The position numbers and the translations under genes are program-made. From Thermoproteus sp. (GTDB taxonomy: Archaea > Thermoproteota > Thermoprotei > Thermoproteales > Thermoproteaceae): a stretch of 64,000 bases of DNA. The stretch spans positions 1,043,824 to 1,107,823 of the forward strand of contig JAWARJ010000001.1 in NCBI GenBank assembly GCA_038893495.1. The letters are read 5' to 3'. Position 1 is the first letter of the stretch, and each line of letters begins with the position of its first letter. Of the stretch, positions 786 through 54,763 are shown piece by piece. The notes beneath the pieces are model-generated. The model was given only the letters and a program-made list of their open reading frames with translations. It had not been told where the DNA came from and searched no databases.

Positions 786-890
<105 letters not shown>

Positions 891-1009
891 GTACTGAACG
901 GTCGCCATTTAAGTCTTTCCGCCCCGATGAGAAGCGCGGGGCGGTCGCGGCGCTTAGCCACATATTCTTCCCCACTGTCATCTCTCGCGCCGCCGCTAGG
1001 CGCCTAACC

Positions 1010-1250
1010 GCCTCAACTCGCTCCCGTAAAGCCGGAAGTACTAAGCTTTGCCGTCGGCCGTTCGCTTGACCTCTGCCCTTTTGCCCGTCAGCGCTCGGCG
1101 TGGGTCAACATGACAGTGCCGTCATTCTTCACCTTCCAGCCTATGGCGATCCACTCCCTCCGCCCCTAGAGTCCTCGGCGTAGAGGACGGAGTATATATG
1201 GCGCCTGTCTTTTGCCTCCCGAGGAATGCATAATGGAGCACCTCAAGCTT
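1010..1250 (-). pseudogene. PaRep2b-like remnant (C-terminal part)
   Basis: Read on the minus strand in shifting frames, this stretch matches the C-terminal half of the PaRep2b-like protein at 54003-54763: YSVLYAED near 1200, then HAER, then LTGKRAEVKR and YFRLYGS near 1015-1050. Stops and frameshifts interrupt it, and no start or complete frame remains. It lies about 120 bp from the tRNA-like fragment at 788-890. PaRep2b is a repeated protein family first named in Pyrobaculum; its function is unknown. The short forward ORFs between 1212 and 1506 overlap this remnant and the conserved 3' flank of the next gene, so I do not call them. Confidence 0.6.
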
Positions 1251-1507
1251 TCATATCCTCTGTCTCTCTACATATATCGCAATGGTGAATCCCTCGACGT
1301 GGACCTTCACGGCTTTTGGTGTTTCGGTCGACGCAGATGCCCTCGAGGGCCGCCACGCGGAAGTTCAAAAGCCCGACGCAACTGCGCCCGCTAAAACTAT
1401 CTCCCTAACGCTAAAGCGGCTATCTTGGTCGCGGAGATGGAACATCCAGAATTGCGAAATAGACATCGGGAAAAAATTCGTCGTTCTTAACTACGAGCCG
1501 CACTAAG

Positions 1508-1876
1508 TTACCTCCCCACTATCAAGGCGGTTATCTTGGACAGAGAAAAGATAAAGAACCATGTGTTCAAGACTATAAAATACAACGTAGCCATGGGGCT
1601 CGACTTCGTAATATATCTCAAATGGACGGCCGTGCCTGCCGCAGTGCTCCAATAGACTGGAATCATCAACATCTCGACGCCCACCGCTCTTATGTCGGCG
1701 AGCACCACCAACGCGAACATAGCCGCAGAACCCAAGACGACGAGCCAATCGAGTAGAGAAAGCCTCTTCTTTTGTGCCCTCAACAAGAAGGGCAACAACA
1801 TGTTTGCGGCGAGATACCACATAATGGGCAACGAGGCGACCACTACGGGGTCGAAGAAGAAGTTGGGCAACGGCAT
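1508..1876 (-). CDS. Small four-helix membrane protein (paralogue of 23117-23482)
   Basis: 122 residues with four hydrophobic segments (about residues 8-30, 42-62, 70-88 and 95-120), so an integral membrane protein. It is clearly paralogous to the protein at 23117-23482: both start MPLP(N/S)FFFDPVVVASLP, share GSAAMFALVVLA in the middle and end in SLSKITAL(I/V)VGR. The promoter is also conserved (T-rich TATA-like box about 25 nt before the ATG, leaderless). The similarity continues about 60 bp past the stop (minus strand, 1506 to 1440). I know no function. Its paralogue sits next to a cysteine-rich secreted protein, so a role beside a peptide product (immunity or export) is possible but unproven. 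Confidence 0.75.
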   Translation of the reverse strand: MPLPNFFFDPVVVASLPIMWYLAANMLLPFLLRAQKKRLSLLDWLVVLGSAAMFALVVLADIRAVGVEMLMIPVYWSTAAGTAVHLRYITKSSPMATLYFIVLNTWFFIFSLSKITALIVGR

Positions 1877-1989
1877 GTAGCAATTTCCACATCAATTAAA
1901 AAATTTCTATTCTAACGACTCAATCGATATGCCGATACGCGGCGGCCCATTTCACCGCAAATACGCCCGACCGCTCGCGGCCGCCGCAA

Positions 1990-2297
1990 CCCTCAAGGCG
2001 CCGAGCCCTCCCGCCATAGTCGCGCATACGGCCAAGCTGTCCATTACGCGTCCGTCGGGCTGGGCGTCGAGGGGCTTAACGATGATAGGGCCCGACCCCG
2101 CGTAGAGCGTGCTGCCTCTAGAGAGCGCAATGGCGAGAGACGTGGCGACCGTGGCCTTGCCCGTGCCTCCCTTTGGGTGCCAAAAATGCGGACCAACGGT
2201 CCTCGTAGGCTACGGCGGGCCGTTGGGTGGTCGGCCAGCGCTAAAAGACGCCGAATTTGACAAACCTCAACACGGTCACCTTTCTCTTGTCGGCCAT
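1990..2297 (-). pseudogene. Decayed ParA/Soj-like ATPase with preserved promoter and start
   Basis: A TATA-like box (about 2318-2328) is followed on the minus strand by ATG at 2297 and an 18-codon frame (MADKRKVTVLRFVKFGVF) ending in TAG. Further on, in other frames, come the P-loop-like residues PKGGTGKATVATSLAIALSR and then LDAQPDGRVMDSLAV, which look like the Walker A and following region of a ParA-type chromosome/plasmid partition ATPase. Frameshifts break the gene. The same order, including the early TAG, occurs at 21581-21960, so the two loci share ancestry. It could also be a short functional peptide gene followed by debris. Confidence 0.55.
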
Positions 2298-2434
2298 AGG
2301 CGGAACTTCCCCCGTCGATATATATTTATGGTGTCCGAGCCGACCCACATCTCACCTATCTTGGGATTCGATGAGCCGCTGAGTCGATCTATCGCTACAT
2401 CAATAATGACATATATAACGGCCATAGTGGGCTC

Positions 2435-3405: not shown

Positions 3406-4205
3406 CGGGGATAGCCCTGGCCCTCTTCGCGTCGGTCCTATGGGCGATAGGCCCTCTGCTCTACAAGACGGGCGCCACCGAAAGCGCTCTGGACGACTTG
3501 TTCTCTATAGCCCTGGCGGCGCTCATATCGGCGCTCCCCCTGGCGGCTCTCGGCTTGAATCTATCTTTAGACGTATGGGCGTACGGATTTCTATTCTCGC
3601 TTCTGGGGCCGGTCCTGGGCACATACGCATATCTCCTATCGCTTAGATACGCCGAGGTGGGCTTGGCAAACCTCGTGTCGTACGCATATATAGTGATGGT
3701 GCCCCTCCTGGAGGCCCCAGCGGAGGGCCTATCGCTCCGATATCTAGCCGCCGGGGCGGTGGCCATGGCCGGCCTCTACGCCATAATGAGCTCCCGGAGG
3801 GCCTCGGCCAAAGGCCTGGCCTTGGCCTCCCTGTCGGCGCTCTTGTACGCATTGTCGTTTCTGGCATTGGGCGCCGCGACATCGTCTACAGACCCCTGGA
3901 GCTTCGCGTTCGCGAGGTCGGTCTCGCTTTTCCTCATAGCGGCCGCGCTGGAGGCCGCCAGGCGCAGGAGGCCTAGGCTGAGCGGCAGGATATTCCTCGC
4001 GGCCGTTTTGGGCTACGGGGTGGGAGGCCCTGCGTTTATACTTTCGGTCTACGAGGCCGGAGTCGTCGTGCCTACCATAATAACCGCGCTCTCGCCTGCG
4101 TTGACGCAGATACTGGCGGCGTCCAGGCTGAACGAAAGGCTTGACGCCTCATCGGCATTGGGCTTCCTCTTGGTGATGGCGGGCATAATCATCGCCTCAG
4201 TTTAA
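3399..4205 (+). CDS. EamA/DMT-family transporter
   Basis: 268 residues with about ten hydrophobic segments arranged as two five-helix halves, the architecture of EamA (drug/metabolite transporter) permeases in the cytoplasmic membrane. Typical phrases are ALFASVLWAIGPLLYK at the N terminus, LRYAEVGLANLVSYAYIVMVPLLEA in the first half and VPTIITALSPALTQILAA with LGFLLVMAGIIIAS at the C terminus. The substrate cannot be read from sequence. The start overlaps the MocA-like gene by 7 nt, so it is cotranscribed with the CoxG and MocA-like genes. A link to cofactor metabolism is only positional. Confidence 0.8.
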   Translation: MLTGIALALFASVLWAIGPLLYKTGATESALDDLFSIALAALISALPLAALGLNLSLDVWAYGFLFSLLGPVLGTYAYLLSLRYAEVGLANLVSYAYIVMVPLLEAPAEGLSLRYLAAGAVAMAGLYAIMSSRRASAKGLALASLSALLYALSFLALGAATSSTDPWSFAFARSVSLFLIAAALEAARRRRPRLSGRIFLAAVLGYGVGGPAFILSVYEAGVVVPTIITALSPALTQILAASRLNERLDASSALGFLLVMAGIIIASV

Positions 4206-13785: not shown

Positions 13786-14370
13786 TCATAATTTGTCGTC
13801 TTTCGGCCTAGAGGTGCCGGCTTGACTCGGCAAGGTGTCCCTCCGCCCCCTCCACGACGGCCTCAAGTCCGGCCGCCACCTCGTAGAGACCCACGTCGAC
13901 CTCATGCCGATGGCGTTTAGGTCGAAGACCGAGCCTATCAATTTCCTGACCCAAGACGCGATTACGCCCCACATTCCCCTCCCCCTCACCTTCTCTCTCA
14001 ACGCCTCATAGACGGCCTCGACCACGGCGAATTCTCGTAACAGTCTCCTCGCCGTCTTCTCGGCTGTAGACCACTGGACCGTACGGCCCAGCTCGGCCGT
14101 TACCGAGACGATACGGCCGGCGACCTCGCCGAGTGGCTCTACCGGCCCGCCGCGGGAGGATGCCCCACACGCGGCTGTACTATAGACATAGGCCAGCCCT
14201 AGAGATGGCCCCGTCGGCATGTAGCCGGTCTGCAGGCGCCATGTTTTGGCGAGGAGTACACCTCGGGGCAGGCGGCGACGATAACGCTGACGGCACATAC
14301 GGCCCCGCCGTGACCGACATGCCCCCGCCACAGACCCGATCCCTGTTCCCCCTCGGCGGGAGACGTGCAA
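13786..14370 (-). pseudogene. Decayed copy of the repeat-family protein at 20871-21437
   Basis: The middle of this frame (about codons 80-150: VAGRIVSVTAELGRTVQWS, STAEKTARRLLREF, VVEAVYEALR) is strongly similar to the intact paralogue at 20871-21437 (EIAGKIVSATAELGRATGWS and so on). Both ends differ: the first 60 codons are Arg/Cys/Gly-rich and look like reading out of frame, and after SVFDLN the similarity stops. It is therefore probably a frameshifted pseudogene, although the frame itself is open for 194 codons. The family looks lineage-specific to Thermoproteales; its function is unknown. Confidence 0.55.
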
Positions 14371-19448: not shown

Positions 19449-20791
19449 AGGATTTTGCCGGGATTAAGTATGCCCTTGGGGTCGAAGACCGCCTTGAGGG
19501 CCTTCATGTACTCAAGGACCTGCGGCTCGAGCTCCAGCCTTAATAGTTCGCGCTTGAGGGTCCCTATTCCGTGTTCTGCCGAAATGCTACCACCCAGCTC
19601 TACTGCTATTTTGCCCAGCCCCTCTATGAACGCCCTGGCCCTTTTGGCCCCCTCGACGTCGCCTCTCCTGAACCAAGTGGTGGGGTGTAGGTTGCCGTCG
19701 CCCACATGTCCGCCCATGGACAAGGGGACCTCCAGCCTTTGGGCCAACTCGACGATCCTCCTGGCGGCTTCGGGCAACTTGGAGACGGGGACTATGACGT
19801 CCTCTATGACTAGGACCCCCTCGCTGCCGAGCTGTCTTTTCATCAACGAGACCTGCGCGCTGAATAGTTTGCGTCGAGGCTCTAGTAGCTCCATCGCGGC
19901 GTCGAGCCCCATGGCCTCCCTGGCTACATACCCCCTCACGAGCTCTTTGAGCCTAGCCAACGCCGATTGTTCGGCACCTTTGCTCACGTCGACCCCCAAG
20001 AACAGCGTATATCTCTCCTCGAGCCCCACCTCTTTGGATTCGGCAGGCCCTAGAAATTCGGCGAATAGAGGCCATATCCTGGCCCCTCTGATCCTCACCA
20101 CGTCTTCCACTAAGGCGCCTAGGTCGTTATAGTAGGCCAATACGGCGACCGCCGATTCGGGCAACGGCGCAATCCTCAAGACTGCCTCGGTGACGAGGCC
20201 CAAGGTGCCCTCGCTGCCCACTATGAGTCTGACCAAGTCGTAGCCGTTCCTACACTTGAGGGTCCTACAGCCCATCTTGAGGAGGTCCCCCTTGCCCGTG
20301 ACCACGTGGAGCCCCAACACCCAATCCCTCATGGTGCCGTACTTGGCGCCGCGCATGCCGCCCGCGCCGTTGGCTATAGCGCCCCCCACCGTCGCGGACT
20401 TCACCGAGCCGGGGTCCACGGGGAAGAACACGCCGTATCTGGACAGCTCTACGTTCAGCTCCTCCAGCCTAATGCCGGGCTGAACGACGACGTAGGAGTC
20501 TGTGGGGTTTACCTCTAAGACTTCGTTCATGCGCTCGAAGCTCACCACGAGCCCCGGCTTGGTCGCCACTGTGTTTCCAGACAGACTCGTGGCGGAGCCT
20601 TGAGAGAACAGAGGGGTCTCGGTCTCGTAGGCCCACCTCACAAGCCAGACCACCTCCTCCTCGGTCTTGGGGAAGACCACGCCTAAAGGCCTCGCGGTGG
20701 GCTCCTCGAAGGAGGCCTCGCGGGAGTAAAGCGAGAGAAATGCGGGGTCGTCCACAAAGCGGTCGCCGAACTTCCTCCTCAACTCCTTCAT
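19445..20791 (-). CDS. glcD: FAD-linked oxidase (GlcD/D-lactate dehydrogenase type)
   Basis: 448 residues, VAO-type flavoprotein. The FAD-binding half shows SQGSATSLSG, VVVQPGIRLEEL and DPGSVKSATVGGAIANGAGG; the C-terminal half has HVGDGNLHP and SAEHGIGTLKRELL. It oxidises a 2-hydroxy acid, most likely D-lactate or glycolate, to the 2-oxo acid. It is translationally coupled to the LutB-like gene by a 4-nt overlap. A TATA-like AATTAATTTTATAG upstream of the ATG supports the start. That promoter and the first codons are duplicated in inverted orientation at 23530-23660. An MFS transporter nearby (23757-25046) could import the substrate. Confidence 0.82.
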   Translation of the reverse strand: MKELRRKFGDRFVDDPAFLSLYSREASFEEPTARPLGVVFPKTEEEVVWLVRWAYETETPLFSQGSATSLSGNTVATKPGLVVSFERMNEVLEVNPTDSYVVVQPGIRLEELNVELSRYGVFFPVDPGSVKSATVGGAIANGAGGMRGAKYGTMRDWVLGLHVVTGKGDLLKMGCRTLKCRNGYDLVRLIVGSEGTLGLVTEAVLRIAPLPESAVAVLAYYNDLGALVEDVVRIRGARIWPLFAEFLGPAESKEVGLEERYTLFLGVDVSKGAEQSALARLKELVRGYVAREAMGLDAAMELLEPRRKLFSAQVSLMKRQLGSEGVLVIEDVIVPVSKLPEAARRIVELAQRLEVPLSMGGHVGDGNLHPTTWFRRGDVEGAKRARAFIEGLGKIAVELGGSISAEHGIGTLKRELLRLELEPQVLEYMKALKAVFDPKGILNPGKIL

Positions 20792-20870
20792 GAACTATTG
20801 GAACTCTATAAAATTAATTGTATTACTGGGGGACTTGGGGCTCCGCGTTTTTCTCTCTTCCAGCCGTCGG

Positions 20871-21437
20871 CTAGCAACCCCTCAGCCCTTCGATGTATGA
20901 CGCTATTTCGCCTATGACGGCCTCTACTGTCTCCAGCCTGTGGGCGAAATCGAGTGGGTCGGCCTTAACGTCGACGTCCGCAACGTCCAAGTCGAATATG
21001 GCCTCTATCACGTCTCTAACCCACGTGAGTGCCGTGCCCCTCGGCCCCCTCTCCTTTGCTCTATCCCTTAAGGCGTTATATACAGCCTTCACGATACCGA
21101 ACTCGCGCAGTAGCCTCCTCGCTGTCTTCTCGGCCGTCGACCACCCAGTAGCGCGGCCGAGCTCGGCGGTGGCCGAGACTATCTTTCCAGCTATCTCGCC
21201 GACGTCTCTGCCGAGATAGACAGTCTTCCTCCTCCGCCACCCCGCATATAGCTGTGCGTAGAGGTACCGCACGCCGTTTCTTACGGCCGCCCACATGTAC
21301 ATCTTGATAGGCCCAAGCTCGATGGACGCCAACGTGCCGCCGTAGGCCAGAGGCATGTGCACATATACGCCTCCCCCTTTTATCTCTTTCGCCGATAAGA
21401 AACGGCGAAATTCCTGCCTACTCCACCTAACATCCAC
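20871..21437 (-). CDS. Repeat-family protein of Thermoproteales, unknown function
   Basis: 188 residues, apparently intact. The N-terminal half (WSRQEFRRFLSAKEIKGGGVYVHM, then MYMWAAVRNGVRYLYAQLYAG) looks alpha-beta; the middle STAEKTARRLLREF stretch is helical and Arg-rich, and the C terminus is acidic and helical (LETVEAVIGEIASYIEGL). A decayed paralogue lies at 13786-14370. It resembles the multi-copy proteins found near tRNAs and remnants in this clade, but I cannot name the family with certainty. It lies in the island between glcD and the MFS gene. Confidence 0.6.
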   Translation of the reverse strand: MDVRWSRQEFRRFLSAKEIKGGGVYVHMPLAYGGTLASIELGPIKMYMWAAVRNGVRYLYAQLYAGWRRRKTVYLGRDVGEIAGKIVSATAELGRATGWSTAEKTARRLLREFGIVKAVYNALRDRAKERGPRGTALTWVRDVIEAIFDLDVADVDVKADPLDFAHRLETVEAVIGEIASYIEGLRGC

Positions 21438-21580
21438 ACATATGAATTCGCAGATAAGACGCAGATAAGAAACGGCGTGGAGATAGACTAAAGATAGTCT
21501 CTTTAGGACTTCTACTCGGCCAGCCGGTGCTGGCCTCGGGAGCCTCCGTAAAGTATATATCGCGGAGGGAAATTCGCCAT

Positions 21581-21960
21581 ATGGCCGACTGCAAGGAGGA
21601 AAAGAGGAGGGTGGCGGTGATTAGGTTCGTCGAGTTCGGCGTCTTTTAGGTCGCGGCCGTGGAGGGGGCGGTGGCTACGGCTATCGCTCAAGCTCTCGCC
21701 TAAAGGCTTATATAGGCCTCGGCGAGGCCTATATATGTTGGTGCGGGTCTGGCATCCCCAAGGGGGGACACTGGCAGGACTACAGTCGCCACGTCGCCGG
21801 TAATCGCGCTCTCTAGGGGCAGGGCGCTCTAGAGGTCGACCCCGTCCCGTTGTGTGAGGCCGTTGAGCGCCCAGCCCGACGGCCAGATGCACTAGGGGAG
21901 GCGGCGGGGCCCGGCGCCTTGGGTGCCGCCCGCCTCGTCCGCCCTAGCGGCGGGCTTGTT
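21581..21960 (+). pseudogene. Decayed ParA/Soj-like ATPase, second copy
   Basis: Same build as 1990-2297 on the other strand. A TATA-like AAGTATATAT at 21551-21560 lies about 25 nt before ATG 21581, followed by 22 codons that end in FGVF and TAG exactly like the first copy. Further on, in other frames, HPKGGTLAGL-type P-loop debris and the DNA equivalents of LAIALSRG and LDAQPDGR can be followed to about 21900. The closing part (GGGARRLGCRPPRPP in one frame) matches the region beside the membrane-protein gene in copy one. Not a functional ATPase. The short 5' frame might still be translated. Confidence 0.55.
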
Positions 21961-22031
21961 CGCGTCAATAAGCAAAAATCTATTCGACAGAAAACTAAAG
22001 TAAAAAAAAAATCTGGATCTTTTTGTAGTTT

Positions 22032-23087
22032 ATGTTGGGCCAAAAAGTTCAGGTAAAGAAGTTGGCGAAAAGTCTGTTGATGCTCGTAGTTATGCTATAC
22101 GGCATGTACGTCCAGGCGGCTTCGACGGCTCCAGCTCAATATCCCGGCCACATCATACAGGTGGCTCTAAGCGGGGAGGGAGAGCTCCAATACAACATAA
22201 CCAGCATACAACAGCTCCTATCTAAACTCAACGCCACTGCTCCACACAACGCCACGTCGGCCGGCGCTTGTAGTTGCGCTGGCGGCTGTAATAGGTCCGC
22301 CCCGCCTCCCAACGTGAAGGTGTACATCGACGTGGTGGCCAACGAGACTTGGACTGAAGACGGACAGCGCTATCAATTCCTCTTCGCCAACATCACGGCG
22401 AGCAACGGGACTTTGAGCTATACGGAATACCTCCTGTTCTACGGGTCTCAAGGCCCGAAGTACAACTTCACGGCGGTAACTCAGATATTGACCAAGCCGC
22501 GTGCGCCGGACGAATACGCGTTGTTCATCACTAGGATAGACTCGTCGCCGGCTAGAGGGAACGCGACCGCCGTGGAGTACATAGTCATTAAGAACGCCAC
22601 AACGCTGTCGGACAGCTACCGCATTATCGCCAAGGCCTTAATGAAGGTGAAGGGAGACAGCCCCAAGGCCTGGCAGATAGCCCACGTAGAGCTCAACAAG
22701 CTGGCCAACATAGTAAAGGAGGAAATACCGAAATACGACAAAAAGGCGCCGACAATAGCAGTGGCGACAGACGTTGTCGTATGCGTGTTCTCGCCCCAGC
22801 CTCTTGCGGGAATAAGCATATACCTAGACTGTCTGCAACCCAATGCGCCGATGTTCGTCCTCCTCGGAAACTGTTGCGTGCCGATTGCGGGAGCTATAGC
22901 CGGTTGCGCTGCTATGTGTCTTACAGGACCGGAGTCATGTTTGCTCTGTGCGGTCGGTGCTATAAATGGAGTATGGAATCTTCTATCCAACCAATGCTAT
23001 CCTGTCTGTCCGGCGATGAATGTATGCGTAGGTATATGCGCACTATCGACTTATTGCATCCCGATTGCGTGCATCAGAATATGGTAA
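22032..23087 (+). CDS. Secreted protein with 14-Cys C-terminal domain (halocin C8-like precursor architecture?)
   Basis: 351 residues. A Sec-type signal peptide is likely (KKLAKSLLMLVVMLYGMYVQA, cut near 29). The middle (about 30-245) is hydrophilic with many NxS/T sequons. The last 101 residues are hydrophobic and contain 14 cysteines: 251, 267, 281, 282, 292, 296, 303, 306, 322, 326, 332, 336, 342 and 347. This layout (signal, 200-residue middle, compact Cys-rich hydrophobic end) recalls the halocin C8 precursor, in which the middle is the immunity protein and the end the antimicrobial peptide. That is inference; I see no proven cleavage site. Alternatively it is a disulfide-rich surface protein. 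A four-helix membrane protein gene follows 29 bp downstream with its own promoter. Confidence 0.7.
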   Translation: MLGQKVQVKKLAKSLLMLVVMLYGMYVQAASTAPAQYPGHIIQVALSGEGELQYNITSIQQLLSKLNATAPHNATSAGACSCAGGCNRSAPPPNVKVYIDVVANETWTEDGQRYQFLFANITASNGTLSYTEYLLFYGSQGPKYNFTAVTQILTKPRAPDEYALFITRIDSSPARGNATAVEYIVIKNATTLSDSYRIIAKALMKVKGDSPKAWQIAHVELNKLANIVKEEIPKYDKKAPTIAVATDVVVCVFSPQPLAGISIYLDCLQPNAPMFVLLGNCCVPIAGAIAGCAAMCLTGPESCLLCAVGAINGVWNLLSNQCYPVCPAMNVCVGICALSTYCIPIACIRIW

Positions 23088-23116
23088 ATCTTTAAAAAAC
23101 TACGCCGGATTTTTCT

Positions 23117-23482
23117 ATGCCTCTCCCTAGCTTCTTCTTCGATCCCGTGGTGGTCGCCTCGTTGCCCATTGTGTCGTATCTCGCCATGAACATGTCGTTG
23201 CCCTTCTTGTTGAGGGGACAGAGGAGGGGTGTCCCTCCGGTTGAGTTGTCTATCGCCTTGGGGTCAGCGGCCATGTTTGCGCTCGTAGTGCTCGCTGTCC
23301 TCAGAGCCGTAGGCGCGGAGGTGTTGATGGTTCCGGCCTATTGGAACTTCGCGGCCGGCTTGGTCCTCCAGTACAGATATACGAAGTCGAATCCAGTCGT
23401 GGCGCTCTACTTCGCAGTTATGAACATATGGTTCCTAGATCTCTCCTTGTCCAAAATAACCGCATTGGTGGTGGGGAGGTAG
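23117..23482 (+). CDS. Small four-helix membrane protein (paralogue of 1508-1876)
   Basis: 121 residues with four hydrophobic segments. It shares the start MPLP(S/N)FFFDPVVVASLP, the central GSAAMFALVVLA and the end SLSKITALVVGR with the protein at 1508-1876. The middle loop differs (RGQRRGVPPVELSIAL against RAQKKRLSLLDWLVVL). The ATG lies about 23 nt after a TATA-like ATCTTTAAAAA, so it is leaderless. It directly follows the cysteine-rich secreted protein, which is missing at the other locus. Both copies keep an open frame, which suggests selection. Function unknown; immunity to or export of the neighbouring product is a testable idea. Confidence 0.75.
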   Translation: MPLPSFFFDPVVVASLPIVSYLAMNMSLPFLLRGQRRGVPPVELSIALGSAAMFALVVLAVLRAVGAEVLMVPAYWNFAAGLVLQYRYTKSNPVVALYFAVMNIWFLDLSLSKITALVVGR

Positions 23483-23529
23483 TCCGTTGCGGTTCGTAGT
23501 TAAAACGACGATTTTTTCCAACGTCTATT

Positions 23530-23756
23530 TCGCAATACAATTAATTTTGAGTTCTAAGTTCATGAGGGAGTTGAGGAGAAGGGGCCGCTTTGTGGACGGC
23601 CCAGCGCTCTACTCCCGCGAGGCGCCGTTCGAGGGGCCCGCCCTTGAGCGTGCGAGGGCTTTCGGCGTTAGACCTAACATACTAAACCCTTCCTATGGAC
23701 AAGCGGCGGGAGCCCTTCCGGCGCGCGGCGGAGACCTCCTAGAATATTCAAAATTA
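23530..23756 (+). pseudogene. Inverted, internally deleted copy of the glcD-lutB operon
   Basis: Positions 23530-23660 repeat the glcD promoter and first codons: AATACAATTAATTTT, then ATGAGGGAG and the codons for GRFVDGPALYSREAPFEG, against DRFVDDPAF and LYSREASFEE in the real gene. After a jump, 23680-23745 repeats the junction between glcD and lutB: ILNP, CCTATG, then a run equivalent to the lutB start including GCGCGCGGCGGAG. More than a kilobase in between is missing. The orientation is opposite to the real operon at 18297-20791, and the copy ends at the stop of the MFS gene. This is a rearrangement scar, not a gene. Confidence 0.75.
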
Positions 23757-27739: not shown

Positions 27740-28030
27740 CGACGCGCCGGCCGGCCGTCAGATGTGGGCGCGAGGCCCAAGGCTCGCCGCCATGTATTCC
27801 ATGCGGAGACAGGGCGCTCCGTATGCTCGGTCCTCCACGCGGAGGGCTCGAGGGGCGAAGGGGGTGGCCATGGGCGGAAAGGCGAATAGAGGAGTCAAGT
27901 CGTGTTGCTATACGCCGATCGCTGCATCGCTGAGGCCATGAGCGCGCCGATCGGCAGGAGGCAGACGCCTAACGGCAAGGCTTGGCGCCTCTGGCCGTAC
28001 GGAAGCAATTTGGGGGTCCCTGAATCTACT
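27740..28030 (+). pseudogene. PaRep2b-like remnant
   Basis: In forward frames: ARPKARRHVFHAE, then CSVLHAEGSRGEGGGHGRKGE, then after a frameshift ADRCIAEAMSAPIGRRQTP and NGKAWRLWPYGSNLG. These match, in order, ARPEARHYVFLAE, YSVLYAEGS, THVEAISALTGRR and GIWYFWLYGSDL of the copy at 54003-54763. A stop and frameshifts make it non-functional. The rest of the 450-bp gap holds only the promoter of the next gene (TTTAAAAAG at about 28059-28067). Confidence 0.65.
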
Positions 28031-37287: not shown

Positions 37288-37530
37288 GCGCGGAGGCGCC
37301 CAGCCGCCTCAGATCGCCCCTGTAGAGGTAGAAGTGCCAAGACCTGCCGTCAGCCGTTTGTTTGACATATCTTCCTGCTGATCAACGCCTCCAATATTTC
37401 GGCGTGAGTAACATGGACCTGCAGTCCTTTTCTCTCTCCTGCTCACGGCGATCCCCTAGAGTCCTCGGCGTAAATGCCCCCTCGCCATGCTCAGCCGCCG
37501 ATACATACGCCCTCTTCGCCAGCGATACGG
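37288..37530 (-). pseudogene. PaRep2b-like remnant
   Basis: On the minus strand: IYAEDSRGSP at about 37470, then HVTHAEILEALISRK, and VKQTADGRSWHFYLYRGDLRRLGAS near 37290-37360. These match YAEGSSGG, KHAERRVAETHVEAI and VKRKPSGIWYFWLYGSDLERLGAG of the 54003-54763 copy. The frames do not join. It lies directly at the 3' end of the Thg1-like gene. The remaining bases up to 37960 hold no recognisable gene. Confidence 0.65.
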
Positions 37531-39987: not shown

Positions 39988-40043
39988 AAAGTAGTGACTT
40001 ACGGCTTAGAGGGCCACCCCTCTAAGCCGTAAGTCACTACTTT
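39988..40043. repeat. Perfect 26-bp inverted repeat with 4-nt loop
   Basis: Arm 39988-40013 and arm 40018-40043 are exact reverse complements over 26 bp, separated by CCAC. Nothing else in the non-coding parts of the window shows such perfect pairing. It abuts a tRNA 3' fragment. On the minus strand a TATA-like TTAAAAATTAG (40053-40063) lies upstream, so RNA could start in or just before the hairpin and run into the tRNA piece. It may be a mini-element, a processed RNA stem or a recombination product. Confidence 0.9.
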
Positions 40044-40059
40044 CCGTAGCGCCTAATTT

Positions 40060-40250
40060 TTAACTCGCTCTACGGGTGTCCCTGGCGAAGAGGACAAGCC
40101 CTTCGGCCCGGTGCGCGTGCGGCCGACGCTCGTGCATCCGGCCGAGAGGGTTCGGCTCCATGTAAAGCACGCGGCTCCGAGGATGGCTTAAGGCAGTGGC
40201 GAGGGGCGACCTTCTTGTCGTCTCCTTTCGGGTGCCATACACGGACTAAT
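40060..40250 (-). pseudogene. Possible third ParA-like remnant
   Basis: The minus frame reads YGTRKETTRRSPLATALSH, then RSRVLYMEPNP, which can be aligned with WHPKGGTGKATVATSLAIALSR and STLYAGSGP of the remnant at 1990-2297; the DNA shows the same WHPK-coding GTATGGCACCCGAAAGG. A TATATATTAG precedes it. Much weaker than the other two copies and without the conserved 5' mini-frame. The remaining stretch to 40310 holds only the promoter of the next operon. Confidence 0.35.
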
Positions 40251-40346
40251 ATATATGGATCTCGCTGATAGTAAGCCTTTAGGTGCGCCCTAATCCATAG
40301 GACCTGTGGCCCGAAAGAGATTTATCGGGATGTCCAACGGCGTTTT

Positions 40347-54002: not shown

Positions 54003-54763
54003 ATGCTCCAACACGCCGAGCGCGAAGTGCTTAAGTCGCTACGCGCGCTGGCCGAAAGGCTCAGGCAAATGGGCGTCGAGGGCGGGATGGGCGAGGTGTC
54101 CAAGAGGGGCAATGCGGCGTCTACCGCTTCCACGTGACTTGCCCCGCCCCAGAGGCCTTCGAGAGGGCTACGTTGAGGGAGGCGCCTAGGGCAGTCGAAG
54201 CCCGCGTCGAGGGGTCCCTAATCGCCATATACATCGAGAGGCAGAGGTACGAGGTGCCGTTTAAGCTCGTGAAGGGCACTGAGCACATCTCGGCTCCTGC
54301 CGACCTCCATCCCGCCCTAAGGGCGCTTGGTGTCGAGGCCGACTTGGCTCCAGACGGCGTTAGGATTAGGAGGGACGGCATGTGGGGCCTTCTGGCCGCG
54401 GCTGTAGAGCAAGCCGTAAGGAGGGGCGAGCCGCCTCAACTGCCGCCGGGCGTTTCGCTTCTGAGCGCGAGGCCCGAGGCCCGCCATTACGTATTCCTCG
54501 CCGAGGCCGAAGACGGGCGGTATGTATATTCCGTCTTATACGCGGAGGGCTCAAGCGGCGGGAGGCGGTGGACCGCTATGGGCGGAAAGGTGATGAGGAG
54601 TGGCAAGGTCCAGCTCAAACACGCCGAGAGACGCGTCGCCGAGACGCATGTGGAGGCCATAAGCGCGCTGACGGGCAGAAGGGCAGAGGTCAAGCGGAAG
54701 CCTAGCGGCATTTGGTATTTCTGGCTGTACGGGAGCGATTTAGAGAGGCTCGGCGCGGGTTGA
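54003..54763 (+). pseudogene. PaRep2b-like protein, best-preserved copy, one frameshift
   Basis: A 209-codon frame runs from GTG 54134. The frame upstream of it (YRFHVTC before the GTG) and another frame starting at ATG 54003 (HAEREVLKSLRALAERLRQMG, then GEVSKRGNA) suggest one longer gene broken by a single frameshift near 54115-54122. Key segments: HPALRALGVEADLAPDGV, YVFLAEAEDGRYVYSVLYAEG, HAERRVAETHVEAISALTGRRAEVKR and the end IWYFWLYGSDLERLGAG. The 209-residue part may still be made. Function unknown. It points at the tRNA-Arg gene 115 bp downstream. Confidence 0.65.

What the first reader, a model, noticed from the sequence alone, without database searches (positions are those of the whole stretch)
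1440..2297. Duplicated block shared with 21581-23540: ParA remnant, membrane protein and 3' flank
Two loci 20 kb apart, in opposite orientation, share the same order: a promoter and mini-frame ending in FGVF-stop, decayed ParA-like P-loop DNA, the 120-residue four-helix membrane gene with its promoter, and about 60 bp of 3' flank (CGTAGTTAA, then CGACGA and CTATTTCGCAAT). In the second locus the Cys-rich gene is placed inside. This looks like a mobile or duplicated cassette of which only the membrane gene stays intact.
Basis: seen in the sequence. Interest (0 to 1): 0.58.

Follow-up and report, generated by a model that had tools for sequence, protein, structure and literature searches.

The report
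Duplicated relic with surviving membrane gene
Two places in a heat-loving archaeon's chromosome carry copies of one old patchwork, the dead front end of a DNA-uptake gene cluster joined to a small membrane-protein gene that stayed intact, and in one copy this gene still sits beside a cysteine-rich secreted protein it may protect the cell against.

Summary
Copy A (rc 1451-2331) and copy B (21546-23536) are paralogous along one collinear block: TATA-like promoter and mini-ORF, decayed ParA, membrane gene, ~52 bp of 3' flank. ParA part and 3' flank each beat 500 of 500 shuffles; sequence beyond both ends does not. The ParA pieces are relics of the VirC1/ParA gene at the front of ted (Thermoproteales DNA exchange) loci, intact at 102 kb and 192 kb of this genome; copy B also keeps the divergent 188-aa gene. 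The membrane gene is the part under constraint (dN/dS 0.18-0.31) and has only these two convincing copies among 81 genomes of the class. I revise two points. The Cys-rich gene was probably lost from A rather than inserted in B: the A/B match starts inside its 3' end, and in both other genomes holding the Cys-rich family a hydrophobic 121-130-aa gene follows at 20-33 bp. The end of the 'flank' is probably a relic of a second, tandem membrane gene. No convincing transposon signature was found. Best functional reading, inferred: the Cys-rich protein is a halocin-like peptide precursor and the membrane protein its immunity partner, kept as an orphan in A. It does not match the halocin C8 domain model.

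The parts
1398..1463 (-). Copy A: relic of a second, tandem membrane gene (3' end, reads ...SATKIAALALGR-stop in one frame); its beginning is the 'CTATTTCGCAAT' end of the shared flank
   Evidence: local alignment to the 3' end of the B membrane gene, 0 of 1000 shuffles reach it, but against the A gene 56 of 1000 do; nhmmer hit 1463-1398, E 0.013 in the held loci
1508..1876 (-). Copy A: intact 122-aa membrane gene
   Evidence: 65% identical to copy B; dN/dS 0.18-0.31
1451..1507 (-). Copy A: 3' flank shared with B 23483-23536
   Evidence: 0 of 500 shuffles
1877..1932 (-). Copy A: promoter region of the membrane gene plus probable remnant of the last ~30 bp of a Cys-rich gene
   Evidence: alignment runs into the B gene's 3' end, 23056 onward; 1 of 500 shuffles reach it
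1934..2200 (-). Copy A: decayed VirC1/ParA relic of a ted locus (codons ~8-95)
   Evidence: tblastn E 4e-13 to the intact ParA at 192 kb; alignments
2241..2297 (-). Copy A: mini-ORF ending FGVF-stop
2298..2331 (-). Copy A: TATA-like promoter of the mini-ORF; end of the A/B homology
   Evidence: upstream control at background
20871..21437 (-). Copy B: 188-aa gene, divergent partner of the ted ParA; multi-copy in this genome only
   Evidence: 79% identical to the 192-kb ted-side copy; 8 matches in own genome, 0 in 18 other genomes; sub-threshold DUF4032 hit only
21546..21580 (+). Copy B: TATA-like promoter of the mini-ORF
21581..21649 (+). Copy B: mini-ORF MADCKEEKRRVAVIRFVEFGVF-stop, also present in the intact 192-kb ted locus
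21729..21943 (+). Copy B: decayed VirC1/ParA relic with in-frame stops and frameshifts
   Evidence: 2 TAG; 20855-21916 collinear with the 192-kb ted locus at 74% over 1099 columns
22032..23087 (+). Copy B: 351-aa secreted-type protein with hypervariable Cys-rich hydrophobic C-terminus
23117..23482 (+). Copy B: intact 121-aa membrane gene
23483..23536 (+). Copy B: 3' flank shared with A, cut off at CTATTTCGCAAT
23534..23740 (+). Relic of an FAD-oxidase/LUD operon start, inverted relative to the intact operon at 20791 and 19448
   Evidence: 71.6% to 20824-20679 and 83.7% to 19452-19410
40039..40300 (-). Third, more decayed ted ParA/promoter relic in the window, with no membrane gene beside it

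Best explanation
Shown: A and B are diverged copies of one compound block, made of the front end of a ted locus (TATA-like promoter, mini-ORF, truncated VirC1/ParA pseudogene) followed by a small membrane gene and a common 3' flank; ParA is dead in both, the membrane gene is intact and constrained in both. Likely (inferred from the sequence): the ancestral block also held the Cys-rich gene and a tandem second membrane gene; A then lost the Cys-rich gene, and in B the second membrane gene was cut off where an inverted FAD-oxidase promoter fragment was joined. The block spread by segmental duplication with inversion, not by a transposon. Inferred function: the Cys-rich protein is exported and its hydrophobic Cys-rich C-terminus acts, perhaps after cleavage, on the membranes of competing cells; the membrane protein made from the next gene shields the producer; copy A is an orphan immunity gene kept because it still protects against a peptide made at B or by neighbours.
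For: Block homology with background outside it. ParA relics trace to intact ParA at 192987 and 102859, next to a HerA/TraG-type ATPase, a pilin matching the P. calidifontis conjugation pilin 8dft at E 1.7e-26 (that 8dft is the P. calidifontis pilus is recalled, the call names it 'Pilin protein'), and a TedA-position membrane protein; ted loci are reported to carry VirC1/ParA and HerA genes (PMC9905601, section 6 and passages). A and B ParA relics share a 6-bp in-frame deletion absent from the three intact ParAs aligned. dN/dS of the membrane gene 0.31 (NG86), 0.18 (YN00), 0.19 (ML); 44 of 94 differences at codon position 3. Cys-rich family: central part (residues 138-247) 60-70% identical, C-terminus 26-38% with many Cys kept. 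A hydrophobic 121-130-aa gene starts 20-33 bp after the Cys-rich gene in 3 of 3 loci, own genome included.
Against: The membrane protein has no detectable sequence similarity to the downstream genes in the two Pyrobaculum genomes (BLASTP E 2.0; hhalign probability below 1%), so the shared arrangement rests on position, size and hydrophobicity. The halocin C8 domain model TIGR04449 finds nothing in this genome, and no Pfam or NCBIfam family fits. AlphaFold models are too poor to use (mean pLDDT 54 and 37.6). The tree of ParA relics is unresolved and does not group A with B (support 0.44 and 0.48). The second membrane relic is weak: nhmmer E 0.013, not significant against the A gene (56 of 1000), and in the wider scan 2 of 9512 stretches (overlapping, at 3601 and 3641) score higher, 25.5 against 24.5. 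No expression or activity data.
Confidence: 0.55

Rival explanations
1. The block is a mobile cassette (transposon-like) that moved as a unit.
For: Two copies in opposite orientation 20 kb apart; a 9-bp direct repeat CTATCTTGG at 1420 and 2356, reached by 4 of 200 shuffles.
Against: Only two copies in the genome; the 9-bp repeat lies inside the probable membrane-gene relic, does not match the block edge at 1451, and is one of eight comparisons; no equivalent in B apart from the FAD-oxidase promoter copy; no transposase or integrase family among the intact genes scanned.
Confidence: 0.12
2. The Cys-rich gene was inserted into copy B rather than lost from A.
For: No trace in A of the Cys-rich CDS apart from its last ~30 bp (284 of 500 shuffles reach the score of the rest).
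Against: The A/B alignment starts 32 bp inside the gene's 3' end (1 of 500 shuffles); the two other genomes with the family have a small hydrophobic gene directly downstream.
Confidence: 0.22
3. The membrane gene is an accessory part of the ted DNA-exchange system, duplicated with it.
For: It lies next to ted ParA relics in both copies.
Against: No relative in the stretches read around the two ted loci of this genome or the related locus of G009, and none convincing in 80 other genomes of the class.
Confidence: 0.1
4. The membrane gene is an unrelated species-specific gene with another role (envelope or stress), and its place beside the Cys-rich gene means nothing.
For: No detectable relatives; no sequence link to the Pyrobaculum downstream genes.
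Against: Constraint between the two copies and the same gene order and spacing in 3 of 3 Cys-rich loci.
Confidence: 0.35

Closest known systems
Ted system loci (Thermoproteales exchange of DNA; VirC1/ParA-like gene)
   Same: ParA relics of A and B derive from it; the 188-aa gene, mini-ORF and promoter order of B matches the intact 192-kb locus.
   Different: No ATPase, pilin or channel genes remain at A or B; ParA is truncated near codons 75-95.
Halocin C8 (ProC8 precursor with C-terminal antimicrobial peptide)
   Same: Secreted-type precursor whose C-terminus is hydrophobic and Cys-rich; ProC8 facts (283 aa, 76-aa mature peptide, Tat export) from passages of PMC11509114 and release of a C-terminal fragment from passages of PMC12893001. 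That halocin C8 itself is Cys-rich is recalled.
   Different: No match to TIGR04449; the N-terminal segment reads as a Sec-type signal rather than Tat (my reading, no predictor run); the putative immunity function is a separate membrane gene, whereas halocin C8 and its immunity protein come from one gene (PMC3831642 passage).
Orphan immunity genes of bacteriocin systems
   Same: A constrained small membrane gene left after loss of its toxin-like neighbour (recalled parallel).
   Different: Immunity function not tested here.

Membership tests
Ted locus relic | VirC1/ParA-like ATPase homologous to that of ted loci | tested here: met
   tblastn E 4e-13 (A) and 4e-7 (B) to the ParA at 192 kb, a locus with a pilin matching 8dft
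Ted locus relic | Pilin, channel and ATPase genes present (functional system) | tested here: not met
   No TedC, TedA or HerA-type match in the window at E<=0.01
Halocin C8 family | Match to TIGR04449 halocin_C8_dom | tested here: not met
   0 matches in own genome at E<=10; the model rings in 4 of 14 control genomes, 1 over the cut-off
Halocin C8 family | Cys-rich hydrophobic C-terminal domain on a secreted precursor | tested here: met
   14 Cys in residues 251-351, hydrophobic N-terminus and C-terminus; that this feature defines the family is recalled
Halocin C8 family | Antimicrobial activity of the C-terminal peptide | not testable with these tools
   needs expression and assay
Transposon or insertion element | Terminal repeats or target-site duplication | tested here: not met
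   no match at the block edges, apart from an off-edge 9-mer in A (4 of 200 shuffles) and the FAD-oxidase promoter copy in B
Transposon or insertion element | Multiple copies in the genome | tested here: not met
   2 copies
Immunity protein of a peptide toxin | Gene directly next to the toxin gene, small membrane protein | tested here: inconclusive
   Order and spacing in 3 of 3 loci but no sequence homology between the membrane genes
Immunity protein of a peptide toxin | Protects cells from the cognate product | not testable with these tools
   needs assay

The most novel reading that the evidence does not exclude
Thermoproteales carry an undescribed two-gene conflict module - an exported precursor with a conserved core and hypervariable Cys-rich tip, followed by a fast-diverging small membrane immunity protein - that in this species became joined to the front of a DNA-exchange (ted) locus, was duplicated with it, and survives at one site as an orphan immunity gene.
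Probability: 0.3. Interest if true: 0.66.

Novelty: new variant of a known kind. Interest (0 to 1): 0.4.

Why it matters
It explains the duplication without a new mobile element, shows that front ends of ted loci are copied and decay in this genome (two intact ParA genes, three relics in one 64-kb window), and points to a candidate peptide-toxin/immunity pair in hyperthermophilic Thermoproteales, for which I found no published description in the searches (listings read, and passages of some of the papers); subscription journals are mostly not in that library.

Tried and rejected
Chance similarity of the flanks: rejected. Further copies of the membrane gene: none in own genome (2 matches at E<=10). 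In 80 other genomes of the class only four weak profile hits at E 0.0036-0.0065, two with stops inside, which I set aside unread. Viral contigs: no relative of the Cys-rich or membrane protein. Phage records: no DNA match. Genome contigs: Cys-rich family found only in P. oguniense (records of the window's own genome may be left out there). One further weak Cys-rich hit, G001 E 5.6e-4 with 2 stops, was dropped unread. AlphaFold models of both proteins were too poor for a fold search, so none was run. PHROGs gave only weak hits apart from ParA. The ParA tree did not resolve A and B. Rfam and ARAGORN found nothing in the window. The DUF4032 hit of the 188-aa gene is below cut-off and not used.

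Full report
CHECK. The reverse complement of 1451-2331 and 21546-23536 share one collinear block: 73% over 489 columns for membrane gene plus flanks, 62% over 342 columns for promoter, mini-ORF and ParA part. Shuffle controls separate the block from its surroundings: 0 of 500 for the ParA part, 0 of 500 for the 3' flank, 1 of 500 for the 5' side of the membrane gene, against 391 of 500, 40 of 500 and 284 of 500 outside it.

WHAT THE ParA PART IS. Intact ParA genes of the same kind lie at 102859-103434 and 192987-193565. At 192 kb the gene is followed by a 132-aa gene, a 634-aa HerA/TraG-type ATPase, further genes, a 159-aa pilin that matches the pilin 8dft at E 1.7e-26 (P. calidifontis TedC by recall), and a membrane protein in the TedA position. 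Pilin and TedA-position genes are also found at 102 kb, in opposite orientation to ParA. The Nat Commun 2023 paper on archaeal DNA import (PMC9905601; section 6 and passages read) describes Ted loci with VirC1/ParA and HerA genes. Copy B is collinear with the 192-kb locus over 1099 columns at 74%, including a divergent 188-aa gene, the mini-ORF (MADGKEGKKKVTVIRFVEFGIS-stop at 192 kb) and the ParA start. Copy A keeps only mini-ORF and ParA. A third relic without a membrane gene lies at about 40.04-40.30 kb. The 188-aa gene has 8 matches in this genome and none in 18 others searched.

HISTORY. A and B ParA relics share a 6-bp in-frame deletion relative to the three intact ParAs aligned and are truncated at about the same place, which fits one truncated ancestor; the short ParA tree is unresolved, with support below 0.5, and places A beside the G009 sequence. 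The A/B match begins 32 bp inside the 3' end of the Cys-rich gene of B, so A probably lost that gene. Downstream of the A membrane gene, rc 1463-1398 resembles the 3' end of the membrane gene (0 of 1000 shuffles against the B gene, but 56 of 1000 against the A gene; nhmmer E 0.013; 2 of 9512 control stretches, overlapping, score higher). I read it as a tandem second copy, of which B keeps only the start, cut off where an FAD-oxidase promoter fragment begins. That fragment and a scrap of the following LUD gene lie inverted relative to the intact operon; a similar fragment lies near 119 kb beside another 188-aa gene copy. No convincing target-site duplication was found; a 9-bp repeat near A (4 of 200 shuffles) does not sit at the block edge.

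WHAT SURVIVES AND WHY. The membrane genes are 65% identical in protein, with 26, 24 and 44 differences of 121 at codon positions 1-3 and dN/dS 0.31, 0.18 and 0.19 by three methods (ratios from the values). The gene has 2 convincing copies in 81 genomes of the class, both here. The Cys-rich protein has relatives in 2 of 60 other genomes, and the same two plus one weak, stop-bearing hit in 80 others; the P. oguniense copy is frameshifted. Its central part is 60-70% identical, its C-terminus 26-38%, with many cysteines kept. In all three loci a hydrophobic gene of 121-130 aa starts 20-33 bp downstream, but these genes show no sequence similarity to the membrane gene here. This is what a peptide toxin with a fast-evolving immunity partner would look like; it is an inference, not a test.

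KNOWN KINDS. Halocin C8 is released from the C-terminus of a precursor (passages) and its immunity protein is encoded in the same gene (passage). The present protein does not match its domain model TIGR04449 and fits no Pfam or NCBIfam family. It may work like a halocin; it is not shown to be one.

VERDICT. A real duplicated block, explained as ted-locus debris joined to a small gene module, not as a mobile element. The interesting residue is the candidate toxin/immunity pair and the orphan membrane gene.

Noticed in passing
window 40039-40300 (-): Third decayed ted ParA/promoter relic (reads YILVRVWHPKG...), with no membrane gene.
   Followed up: partly
window 13852-14223 and G000:C1 118622, 924582, 191608: Further partial or decayed copies of the 188-aa gene; family multi-copy in this genome and absent from 18 others searched.
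   Followed up: partly
window 998-1244 with 54476-54756, 37294-37472, 27807-28015: A separate repeat family (64-66% identity) directly beside copy A; no Pfam family explains it.
   Followed up: partly
L041 6517-6651 and 7257-7391: 135-bp, 93% identical duplication of the 3' end of a membrane-protein gene in front of the 192-kb ted locus, possibly an integration or recombination scar.
   Followed up: no
window 787-870: T-arm-like stretch (GGGATTTGAACCCGGGA) suggesting a tRNA with intron or a tRNA remnant; ARAGORN (bacterial code) and Rfam report none.
   Followed up: partly
L042 3544-4230 and 8858-11802: In the 102-kb ted locus the pilin and TedA-position genes are inverted relative to ParA and the ATPase, unlike the 192-kb locus.
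   Followed up: no
window 2241-2297 (-), 21581-21649 (+), L041 8846-8911: An 18-22-aa mini-ORF with its TATA-like box stays open in two decayed copies and one intact ted locus; may encode a micropeptide.
   Followed up: partly
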